From Fimbriimonadaceae bacterium (GTDB taxonomy: Bacteria > Armatimonadota > UBA10988), in NCBI GenBank assembly GCA_020850355.1, contig JADZEX010000034.1, positions 62,001 through 126,000 on the forward strand: a stretch of DNA of 64,000 nucleotides, written 5' to 3'. Positions 24,400 through 38,123 of this stretch are shown here, in pieces. How positions within the stretch are numbered: position 1 is the stretch's first letter; each line of letters starts with the position of its first letter. The notes below the pieces were generated by a model, which had not been told where the DNA came from, made no database searches, and saw nothing but the letters and a program-made list of their open reading frames with translations. A program made the translations under genes and the position numbers.

Positions 24400-26370
24400 A
24401 TGCTCAAACGAGTCGTCATCGCTCTGCTGCTGGGAACGCTGCTGCAGCCGCTGGCCGGCCAGGCGCAGGACAAGCAGGCGGAGATTCAGGCCCTCAAGGA
24501 CCGGCAGACCGACCTCAAAGACAAGTTGGCCGCCGCCGAGAAGCTCCAGGCGGCCCGGCCGCAAGGTCAGCGGGCGGCGCTGCAGGCGACCATCGACAAG
24601 TACCGCGCGGAACTGGCCGACCTCGATGCGAAGCTCGCGGCCCTTGGCGCGGGCGGCGCGACAGCCGGCGGCAAGGAACTCGACGAGAAGACTCGCAAAG
24701 AGATTGCCGACCTCAAGAAGAAGCGCGCCGCACTGCTGACGCGGATCACCGCGCGCTATGCCGAGATTGAGAAGACTCCCAAAGACCAGCCCGCCGCGCC
24801 CGGCGGCGGAATGGCCGGTGGCCCGGCCGCGCCTGGTGGGCCGGCGATGCCCGGCATGCCCGGCCCGGCGGTCGACCCCGCGGGTGGGGCCGATCCCGGC
24901 GGCATGGCCCCCGGCGCCGAGGGCATGGGCGGCATGGGCGCCGTGCCGATGTCCCGGCGGCAACTGCTCGAGCAGCAACAGCGCGAAGACCTCGACGAGC
25001 TGGAGCGGATCAAGCTGCGGATCAAGCTGCTCGAAGAGGGTCCCTCGGAGTCGATGCTGCCGGACAACGACAATCAGCCCGAGATGAATCCGCTGCTGCT
25101 CTACGGCGGCAGCCTCGAGAAGAGCCCGCTGGCCCCGAAGATCGGACCCTGGGGCAGCGGCAACATCAGCGAGAACGACACCGGCATCGTCGAGGGGCTG
25201 AAGTCGCTGTTGGTCTACACCGACGGCTACTACCGCGGCGTGCGGATCGACTTCGGCAACGCCGCCGAGATCGCCAAGTACTTCGACAAGCCGGACATCA
25301 GCTACCTGCAGTTCGACGTCGCGTTCTTCGCCAAACAGGCGCCCGCGGCGACCGGCGGCACGCCGGGCATGCCCGGCAGTGGTGGCGAGAGCGCTGGCAT
25401 GGGCGCGCCCGGTGGCGTCCTCGATCCGGGGATGGCGCCCGGTGGCTTCAGCGGTGGCCCGCCCGTCGAAGGAGCGCCCGGGATGCCGGCGCCGGCGATG
25501 GGTTCGGGCGCTGGGGCGCCCGGCGGTCCGGCGATGCCGGCGATGCCCGGGATGCCCCCCGCGCCGGCCGGTTCCGGTGCGCCCGGTGGCGCGGCGATGC
25601 CTCCTGGGATGCCCGGCATGCCCGGCATGCCCGGCATCGGCAGCGACGGGCTGCCCCTGCCGGGGATGCCCGGCGAGCCTGGCGCGCCGGGTGGTGCCGG
25701 CCTGCCCGGCGGCCCTGGCGCCCCGGCCGCCCCGGCCGTCAAGCCGCCGCCGGCCACTCGTAGCCTGCGCGTCGTGCTCGACACCGACCGCGGTCCGGTG
25801 GTGATCGAAGACCACTACTTCGACCACACCTACGAGGTCAACCCCGGCTGGACGCGGGTCTTCATTCCGGTCAAGGAGTTCATCCTGCCGAATGAGCGGA
25901 AGCCCAGCACGCTGACCCGGCTGCGGCTGTTCGGCGACACCAAGGACGCCTTCTACGTCGGCATGATCCGCTTCGTCGCCGACGAAGTGCCGCTCACGCC
26001 GCAGATCCTCGGGCCTGAGAAGGTCGACGCCGTGGCCGGCGAGGAGCTCAAGCTCGAAGGCAGCATCGCCGCCGGGCTGAGCCTCGTCGACTACGCCTGG
26101 GACTGGGGCGACGGCGACACCGAGGAGACCGACGAGCCGGTGGCGACCCACCTCTACGTCAAGGCCGGGACCTACACGGTGACCCTCACCGCGCGCGATA
26201 AGGACAAGCTGAAGGCCGACGGCAAGACCACCATTCGCGTGGTGGTGAAGCCGTTCAGCGAAGCCCCGAAGCGGCCGGCGGTGCAACCCGGGATGCCGGG
26301 CGGGATGCCGGGCGGACCGGCCGCCCCGGCGCCGGGGATGCCTCCCGGCTTCAGCGCCCCGCAGAACTAG
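24400..26370 (+). CDS. Exported coiled-coil/PKD protein with Gly-Met-Pro-rich insertion
   Basis: This is a 656-residue protein starting at ATG 24400 with a signal peptide (MLKRVVIALLLGTLLQPLAG). Parts in order: a charged coiled coil (about 22-120), a first Gly-Met-Pro-rich spacer (130-185), a second short coiled coil, a beta-sandwich half (GYYRGVRIDFGNAAEI to LQFDVAFFAK), an approximately 135-residue Gly/Met/Pro/Ala-rich stretch with GMPGMPGMP runs, then the rest of the sandwich (VVIEDHYFDHTY, TRVFIPVKEF, FYVGMIRFVAD). A PKD domain follows (SLVDYAWDWGDGD to AGTYTVTLTA), and the C-terminus is again GMPGG-rich. It is likely a cell-surface structural or glycan-binding protein. A perfect hairpin follows the stop. 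Confidence 0.75.
   Translation: MLKRVVIALLLGTLLQPLAGQAQDKQAEIQALKDRQTDLKDKLAAAEKLQAARPQGQRAALQATIDKYRAELADLDAKLAALGAGGATAGGKELDEKTRKEIADLKKKRAALLTRITARYAEIEKTPKDQPAAPGGGMAGGPAAPGGPAMPGMPGPAVDPAGGADPGGMAPGAEGMGGMGAVPMSRRQLLEQQQREDLDELERIKLRIKLLEEGPSESMLPDNDNQPEMNPLLLYGGSLEKSPLAPKIGPWGSGNISENDTGIVEGLKSLLVYTDGYYRGVRIDFGNAAEIAKYFDKPDISYLQFDVAFFAKQAPAATGGTPGMPGSGGESAGMGAPGGVLDPGMAPGGFSGGPPVEGAPGMPAPAMGSGAGAPGGPAMPAMPGMPPAPAGSGAPGGAAMPPGMPGMPGMPGIGSDGLPLPGMPGEPGAPGGAGLPGGPGAPAAPAVKPPPATRSLRVVLDTDRGPVVIEDHYFDHTYEVNPGWTRVFIPVKEFILPNERKPSTLTRLRLFGDTKDAFYVGMIRFVADEVPLTPQILGPEKVDAVAGEELKLEGSIAAGLSLVDYAWDWGDGDTEETDEPVATHLYVKAGTYTVTLTARDKDKLKADGKTTIRVVVKPFSEAPKRPAVQPGMPGGMPGGPAAPAPGMPPGFSAPQN
25351..25750 (+). 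repeat. Low-complexity Gly-Met-Pro-rich coding repeat
   Basis: The DNA encodes many GMP, GAP and GGP triplets, some in perfect tandem (ATGCCCGGC repeated). It is collagen-like in its frequent Gly-X-Pro spacing, but the register is interrupted. It sits between two halves of what looks like a single beta-sandwich domain. Confidence 0.7.
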
Positions 26371-37325: not shown

Positions 37326-38123
37326 TCAGCGCGTCTCGTACCAGGCGCCCGTGTCCTGCTCGTGGCGCTCCGGCCGGCCACCAGGCTGCTGCTGTTGCTG
37401 CCACAGCCGCCGGTCGCGGCCTTGGCCCTGCTGCGCCTGCCGCTCGCGCTGCTGGCGCTGGTAGAGGTCCTGCTGGAAACGGTCGTTGTTGCCGCCGCCC
37501 CACTCGTCCTCGTGCCCTAACGCCCGCCCGCGGCGGCGACCGGCGTTGCCGTTACGGCGGCCGGTGCGGTTCCCGTTGTGGTTCCCGTTCGCATTCCCAT
37601 TCCCGTTTCCATTGCCCTGGCCGGCGTCTTGGTCATCATCGTCTTGGGTGCCCTGGCCGCCGCCGCCGTTGCCCTGGCCGTTGCCCTGGCCCTGGCCGGG
37701 GTTGTCATCGCTGGTGGCGCCCTGACCGCCGCCGTTGCCCTGGCCGTTGCCCTGGCCCTGGCCGTTGCCGTTGGAGTCTTCCTTGGTGTAGTCGTCCTGG
37801 TCAAAGCGGTCGTTGTTGCCGCCGCCCCACTCTTCTTCGTGGCCGAGCGCCTTGCCGTTCGGGTCGTCGTCCTCATCCTCCGGCCAACTCGGTGGTTCGT
37901 CGCTGCCGTCGGGACCCGTCGGGGACTCTTCGCCCTCGTCGAAGGGGTCGGCCGGCACCTCACCCGGCAGGGTCGCCGAGGTGCTGTTGAAGGCCGAGGC
38001 TTCCTCTATCGTCACGCGCAAGCGGTTGCCGAGTCGCCAAACCAGCGGCAGCGCGGCCGCGACCAGGCACAGCAGCAGACCGTATTCGACCGTCGACTGT
38101 CCGCGTCTCCGTCGTTGGCGCAT
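37326..38123 (-). CDS. Flp/Tad-pilin-like protein with long Asn/Gly-rich tail and duplicated motif
   Basis: This is a 265-residue protein starting at ATG 38123. The N-terminus RRRRGQSTVEYGLLLCLVAA matches type IVb (Flp) prepilins: basic leader, cleavage after Gly8, Glu at mature position 5, then a hydrophobic helix. After residue 60 it is acidic and then built of NGQGQGNG-type repeats. A 16-residue motif ALGHEEEWGGGNNDRF at 92-107 recurs as ALGHEDEWGGGNNDRF at 201-216, one on each side of the Asn/Gly tract. Flp pilins are normally 50-70 residues, so the tail is extraordinary. No tad assembly genes are in the window. It could be an exported fibre, adhesin or matrix protein. Confidence 0.65.
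   Translation of the reverse strand: MRQRRRRGQSTVEYGLLLCLVAAALPLVWRLGNRLRVTIEEASAFNSTSATLPGEVPADPFDEGEESPTGPDGSDEPPSWPEDEDDDPNGKALGHEEEWGGGNNDRFDQDDYTKEDSNGNGQGQGNGQGNGGGQGATSDDNPGQGQGNGQGNGGGGQGTQDDDDQDAGQGNGNGNGNANGNHNGNRTGRRNGNAGRRRGRALGHEDEWGGGNNDRFQQDLYQRQQRERQAQQGQGRDRRLWQQQQQPGGRPERHEQDTGAWYETR
37476..37523 (-). repeat. Second copy of the duplicated motif in the pilin-like gene
   Basis: This encodes A201-F216. It is nearly identical in DNA to the copy at 37803-37850; a 25-base stretch is shared exactly. Confidence 0.8.
37803..37850 (-). repeat. First copy of the duplicated motif in the pilin-like gene
   Basis: This encodes A92-F107, with one residue difference (Glu to Asp) from the second copy. 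The two copies flank the Asn/Gly-rich tract. Confidence 0.8.

What the first reader, a model, noticed from the sequence alone, without database searches (positions are those of the whole stretch)
25351..25750. Gly-Met-Pro-rich tract inserted inside a beta-sandwich domain
The strands before and after the tract (GVRIDFGNAAEI...LQFDVAF and VVIEDHYF...FIPVKEF...GMIRFVAD) look like two halves of a single domain. The insertion is about 135 residues with GMPGMPGMP runs, collagen-like in feel. An inserted flexible loop of this size in a surface sandwich is odd and may be an exposed attachment or phase-variable loop. Two more GMP-rich spacers occur in the same protein.
Basis: partly seen in the sequence, partly recalled or inferred. 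Interest (0 to 1): 0.5.

Follow-up and report, generated by a model that had tools for sequence, protein, structure and literature searches.

The report
Expandable loop in conserved secreted protein
A bacterium carries a long, flexible Gly-Pro-Met-rich loop inside one folded domain of a secreted protein; relatives across its phylum have the same protein with a loop of very different length at exactly the same place, so the loop is a tolerated, freely growing and shrinking arm on an otherwise unknown but widely kept protein.

Summary
The gene is 24400-26370 (+), 656 aa. The tract is residues 311-454 (25330-25761; 144 aa; G 29%, P 25%, A 18%, M 9%). It splits one domain: in 193 of 193 homologous loci measured, both halves lie in one frame, A before B, with an insert of 21-298 aa (median 68) at the same site; 15 have 30 aa or less, a normal loop. 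Coupling analysis shows an antiparallel streak between the halves. The phylum is Armatimonadota (a relative's contig equals the published Chthonomonas calidirosea length). The domain is in 112 of 121 genomes (87 of 91 good ones), matches no Pfam, NCBIfam or PDB family significantly, and is followed by a PKD domain. In 119 of 193 loci the gene directly follows a YmdB-family gene; the window's own order lacks that gene but keeps this one. Tracts gap about six times more per residue than the domain; on/off phase variation and a collagen helix are not supported. Best reading: a hairpin loop of a secreted beta-sandwich grown into a disordered Gly/Pro-rich arm. Function unknown; envelope or matrix attachment is inferred only. 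Structure prediction was single-sequence and uninformative.

The parts
24400..26370 (+). Whole gene, 656 aa, secreted PKD-domain protein with split beta-sandwich-like domain
   Evidence: ORF; homologues across the phylum
24400..24465 (+). Signal-peptide-like N terminus (residues 1-22)
   Evidence: By eye from the sequence; no signal-peptide program was run
24472..24777 (+). Charged, probably coiled-coil region (residues 25-126), of the window's own family
   Evidence: By eye; the frame runs over 210 residues ahead of the domain in WIN, G001, G003 and G098 against a median of 33
24787..24954 (+). First GMP-rich spacer (about residues 130-185)
   Evidence: Sequence
25081..25329 (+). Half A of the split domain (residues 228-310, ends LQFDVAFF)
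   Evidence: Alignments; half-A profile hit 3.6e-24
25330..25761 (+). Gly/Pro/Ala/Met-rich tract in a strand-to-strand loop (residues 311-454, 144 aa)
   Evidence: Insert limits from homologues
25609..25637 (+). Only perfect tandem repeat in the tract, 3.2 copies of ATGCCCGGC (9 bp, in frame)
   Evidence: Tandem Repeats Finder
25762..26010 (+). Half B of the split domain (residues 455-537, begins SLRVVLDT)
   Evidence: Alignments; half-B profile hit 5.4e-27
26032..26241 (+). PKD domain (residues 545-614)
   Evidence: Pfam PF18911 1.2e-11 and PF00801 2e-11, both over the curated cut-off
26284..26367 (+). GMP-rich C-terminal tail (about residues 629-656)
   Evidence: Sequence; a long tail also in G001, G003, G040

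Best explanation
The gene encodes the window organism's copy of a near-universal Armatimonadota secreted protein: signal peptide, one orphan beta-sandwich-like domain, one PKD domain. The tract sits in the loop between two strands of that single domain (LQFDVAFF and SLRVVLDT) and is looped out of the fold as a flexible, mostly disordered Gly/Pro-rich arm. It grows and shrinks in frame, probably by replication slippage and unequal exchange in short coding repeats, because this loop tolerates almost any length; glycine, proline and small residues are kept because they stay soluble and unfolded. Shown: single domain, same site, variable length, retention across the phylum. Inferred: beta-sandwich fold, disorder, slippage, extracytoplasmic place. 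Least certain: that the protein is an envelope or matrix component and the arm a spacer or attachment element.
For: Both halves in one frame, A before B, in 137 of 137 two-half frames and in 56 of 56 further loci; the one half found alone belongs to the G002 gene, cut by a contig end. Insert 21-298 aa, median 68, always at one site; 15 of 193 have 30 aa or less. Direct-coupling pairs between halves form antiparallel streaks (residues 274-291 with 505-512; 300-305 with 523-529): 11 neighbour pairs against 3.3 when re-paired, p 0.003, 186 sequences; 12 against 2.9, p 0.001, 136 sequences; half A-PKD and half B-PKD controls not significant in either run. Tract gaps per residue 0.27 against 0.046 in the domain, more in 657 of 675 pairs. 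Glycine over 20% in 151 of 171 tracts of 40 aa or more; hydrophobics lower than in the domain in 122 of 123. Domain without PKD found in 112 of 121 genomes.
Against: No trustworthy structure: both AlphaFold2 jobs were single-sequence (mean pLDDT 38.8 and 46.1) and the one Foldseek search gave no match under E 0.27. The domain has no significant match in PDB, Pfam or NCBIfam, so the beta-sandwich label rests on strand pattern and weak couplings; bulk coupling counts between halves were not enriched (ratios 0.8-1.2), and of 12 block tests per run the parallel test within half A also scored p 0.006. 20 of 171 long tracts are not Gly-rich. Neutral drift of a permissive loop, with no function for the arm, fits as well. 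Coiled coil and signal peptide were judged by eye.
Confidence: 0.8

Rival explanations
1. Two separate domains joined by an ordinary Gly/Pro-rich linker.
For: The single-sequence model of half B plus PKD shows strands on its own, at low confidence; long Gly/Pro-rich stretches are common linkers (general knowledge).
Against: The halves stay together in 193 of 193 loci measured; 15 of 193 have 30 aa or less between them; the antiparallel coupling streaks cross between the halves.
Confidence: 0.08
2. The tract is purely neutral: a permissive loop that collects in-frame repeat expansions under GC-rich mutation, with no function of its own. (This is compatible with the structural part of the best explanation.)
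For: Indel rate about six times the domain's; tandem arrays in 56 of 137 tracts, 54 with period a multiple of 3; length correlates weakly with GC (rho 0.27); loops of 21-27 aa are viable.
Against: Glycine share does not follow GC (rho 0.07); a long, mostly Gly-rich insert is kept over most of the phylum while the domain diverged to about 30% identity.
Confidence: 0.4
3. A collagen-like or elastomeric adhesive arm, selected for attachment.
For: GMP/GEP/GAP triplets, longest Gly-x-y run 7 against about 3.7 in shuffles, p 0.01-0.02; signal peptide and PKD domain.
Against: Runs of 8 or more triplets in only 16 of 123 tracts; Pfam Collagen in 1 of 35, E 0.084; no excess of triplets in the closest relatives G001, G002, G003, G004.
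Confidence: 0.15
4. A phase-variable contingency locus.
For: A short perfect repeat exists, 3.2 copies of 9 bp.
Against: Best period is a multiple of 3 in 54 of 56 arrays, so no frame switching; no population data.
Confidence: 0.03

Closest known systems
Low-complexity insertions inside globular domains of Plasmodium falciparum proteins (PMC2705789, passages read, which cites Pizzi and Frontali)
   Same: Variable low-complexity stretch in a probable surface loop of a folded domain, thought to be extruded
   Different: Here Gly/Pro/Ala/Met instead of Asn, a bacterial secreted protein, and one fixed site kept over a phylum
PKD-domain secreted proteins (Pfam PF18911, PF00801)
   Same: Has one PKD domain over the curated cut-off
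   Different: PKD is only the C-terminal part; the preceding domain is in no library searched
Carbohydrate-binding / galactose-binding-like beta-sandwiches such as CBM30 (PF21582)
   Same: Strand pattern looks alike (recalled); weak hits in 3 of 55 members, best E 0.041
   Different: No hit is significant; sugar binding untested
Bacterial collagen-like proteins
   Same: Gly-Pro-rich, some Gly-x-y triplets
   Different: Triplet runs short and interrupted
Mycobacterial PE_PGRS proteins (recalled, not tested)
   Same: Gly-rich, length-variable low-complexity region
   Different: There a C-terminal region after a PE domain, not an insertion in a fold

Membership tests
Low-complexity insertion within one globular domain | Flanks form one domain that also exists with a short loop | tested here: met
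   15 of 193 homologues have 21-30 aa at the site; coupling streaks between halves
Low-complexity insertion within one globular domain | Insert disordered and outside the fold | not testable with these tools
   Single-sequence model only; tract below pLDDT 50 nearly throughout, but so is most of the model
PKD domain | Profile match over curated cut-off | tested here: met
   PF18911 44.9 bits (cut-off 27), PF00801 44.1 (23.5)
Collagen-like protein | Long uninterrupted Gly-x-y repeat | tested here: not met
   7 triplets at most in the window tract; 8 or more in 16 of 123 tracts; Pfam Collagen 1 of 35 at E 0.084
Phase-variable contingency locus | Repeat unit whose copy number shifts the frame or promoter | tested here: not met
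   9-bp unit, 3.2 copies; 54 of 56 arrays with period a multiple of 3; the promoter region was not examined
Known carbohydrate-binding module | Significant match to a CBM family | tested here: not met
   CBM30 in 3 of 55 members, best E 0.041; PDB profile search best E 0.28, to an RNA-binding protein
Known carbohydrate-binding module | Sugar binding | not testable with these tools
   Needs a binding assay

The most novel reading that the evidence does not exclude
A phylum-wide envelope or matrix protein of Armatimonadota, encoded in most lineages in the recA - RNase Y - YmdB gene group, built on an undescribed beta-sandwich domain whose one strand-to-strand loop is a lineage-tuned elastomer-like arm (21-298 aa) that sets reach, stiffness or adhesion of the cell surface.
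Probability: 0.2. Interest if true: 0.65.

Novelty: new variant of a known kind. Interest (0 to 1): 0.45.

Why it matters
It points to an undescribed domain in a secreted protein kept by most of a poorly studied bacterial phylum (112 of 121 genomes) and absent from the Pfam, NCBIfam and PDB copies searched. It also offers a natural series of one domain with a loop of 21 to 298 residues at one site, which makes the question of how folds tolerate low-complexity insertions directly testable.

Tried and rejected
The fold without the tract was not submitted, being a changed copy. Both jobs used single window sequences and gave poor models; Foldseek on the first gave only matches with E 0.27 or worse, which I do not use. 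Reaching outside the phylum failed: the one genome-contig scan found a PKD match only, viral contigs none, plasmids one match over the PKD part, and an archaeal centre was not accepted; so phylum specificity is not claimed.

A copied-cassette idea (the tract shared with a TPR protein of the same genome) was tested: similarity exceeds dipeptide- and dicodon-preserving shuffles, but identical non-Met residues share codons in 24 of 53 cases against 19.6 expected, so recent DNA copying is not supported; the TPR relative in G002 has its own differently composed tract.

YmdB as a necessary partner was rejected: TIGR00282 is not found in the five genomes of the window's order, while three control relatives ring. 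These five include draft genomes of 72-95% completeness.

Full report
What is there. The tract lies in a 656-aa ORF, 24400-26370 on the + strand. From N to C: a signal-peptide-like start, a probable coiled coil, a GMP-rich spacer (about residues 130-185), a short helix-like stretch, half A of a domain (228-310), the tract (311-454; 25330-25761), half B (455-537), a PKD domain (545-614; Pfam E 1.2e-11) and a GMP-rich tail (about 629-656). Signal peptide and coiled coil are read by eye.

Which organism. The phylum is therefore, by inference, Armatimonadota.

How widely it occurs. A profile of 18 short-insert homologues matches 234 of 251 genomes of the phylum (173 of 179 of good quality) at E 1e-5. 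Since that profile includes the PKD domain, I repeated the search with a PKD-free profile: 112 of 121 genomes, 87 of 91 good ones. It was not possible to test other phyla properly; viral contigs and plasmids gave no full relative.

One domain, not two. I measured 193 loci (137, 56). Both halves lie in one open frame, A before B, in all of them. Of the 139 names first fetched, two gave no two-half frame: G012, and G002b, which is the contig end of the G002 gene and holds half A alone. The distance between halves is 21-298 aa, median 68, quartiles 54 and 101; 15 of 193 are 30 aa or less and 50 are 100 or more; the window's 144 ranks 11th. Homologues such as G017 (21 aa) and G023 and G036 (26 aa) show the domain with an ordinary loop.

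Couplings. With the insert left out, mean-field direct-coupling analysis on 136 sequences and on 186 gave, among the 40 strongest pairs between halves, 12 and 11 antiparallel neighbour pairs against 2.9 and 3.3 when partners are re-paired at random (p 0.001 and 0.003). The same test between half A and PKD, and half B and PKD, was not significant (p 0.17-0.93). The streaks join residues 274-291 to 505-512 and 300-305 to 523-529, as expected if strands of both halves share a sheet. Against this: overall numbers of strong pairs between halves are not enriched (0.8-1.2 of expectation), the sequences are few, and 12 such tests were made per run, one of which (parallel, within half A) also reached 0.006. 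An earlier null that permuted half B among genomes breaks shared ancestry as well and is not used.

The tract as a sequence. In 137 loci the insert averages 35% glycine and 12% hydrophobics, against 10% and 32% in the domain. Of 171 inserts of 40 aa or more, 151 exceed 20% glycine; the other 20 do not. Glycine share does not follow local GC (rho 0.07), though length does weakly (0.27). For 675 pairs with at least 50% domain identity, gaps per residue are 0.27 in the tract and 0.046 in the domain, and larger in the tract in 657 pairs. On a tree built without the insert, three length classes change at least 14 times. Tandem arrays were found in 56 of 137 tracts, best period a multiple of 3 in 54; coding repeats lean that way in any case. 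The window tract has one perfect repeat, 3.2 copies of 9 bp. So the tract evolves mainly by in-frame length change.

What the domain is. Fifty-five short-insert members had no significant Pfam or NCBIfam match (lowest E 0.018 for Pfam, 0.0054 for NCBIfam, the latter in one member), and the PKD-free profile had no PDB match below E 0.28. Weak hints to CBM30 and other sugar-binding sandwiches agree with the strand pattern but prove nothing. AlphaFold2 without an alignment gave pLDDT 38.8 and 46.1; these do not decide anything.

Gene neighbourhood. In 101 of 137 loci a TIGR00282 (YmdB-family) metallophosphoesterase gene lies directly upstream on the same strand, with a median of 34 nt from its stop to the last Met before the domain; RNase Y was found near 61 and RecA near 65 of 137 (families). 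Over 193 loci the count is 119, with too little upstream sequence in 5 of the 74 others. In B. [quoted passage not shown] But the window's order has no TIGR00282 match in 5 of 5 genomes, while 3 of 3 other relatives do, and the protein is still there; so the link is not essential.

Verdict. Phase variation and a collagen helix are not supported. The most likely mechanism is a loop that tolerates in-frame repeat growth and carries a flexible arm; whether the arm does anything is open. Searches of the paper library for Armatimonadetes or Armatimonadota with PKD, glycine-rich, or core genome and hypothetical protein found nothing on this protein (listings only); most subscription papers are not in that library.

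Noticed in passing
L002:1030-3294 (G000:C17:12438-14699): A TPR-like protein in the same genome carries a GMP/GAP-rich tract that resembles the window tract more than shuffles allow (protein score 253 against 183 +- 12), without a clear excess of shared codons.
   Followed up: partly
L195 (G000:C35:11361): A third protein of the genome has a GMPGMPGMP run in its C-terminal part.
   Followed up: no
window 37326-38123 (-): 265-aa protein with a pilin-like N terminus (QSTVEYGLLLCLV, recalled TadE/Flp likeness) and GNGQGNG repeats.
   Followed up: no
window 25302-25784 (-): Open antisense frame over the tract that also reads Gly-Pro-Met/Ile-rich, because GGCATGCC is its own reverse complement.
   Followed up: no
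homologous loci, e.g. L026, L029, L058: The family sits next to recA, recX, RNase Y and ymdB in many Armatimonadota, a conserved gene group.
   Followed up: partly
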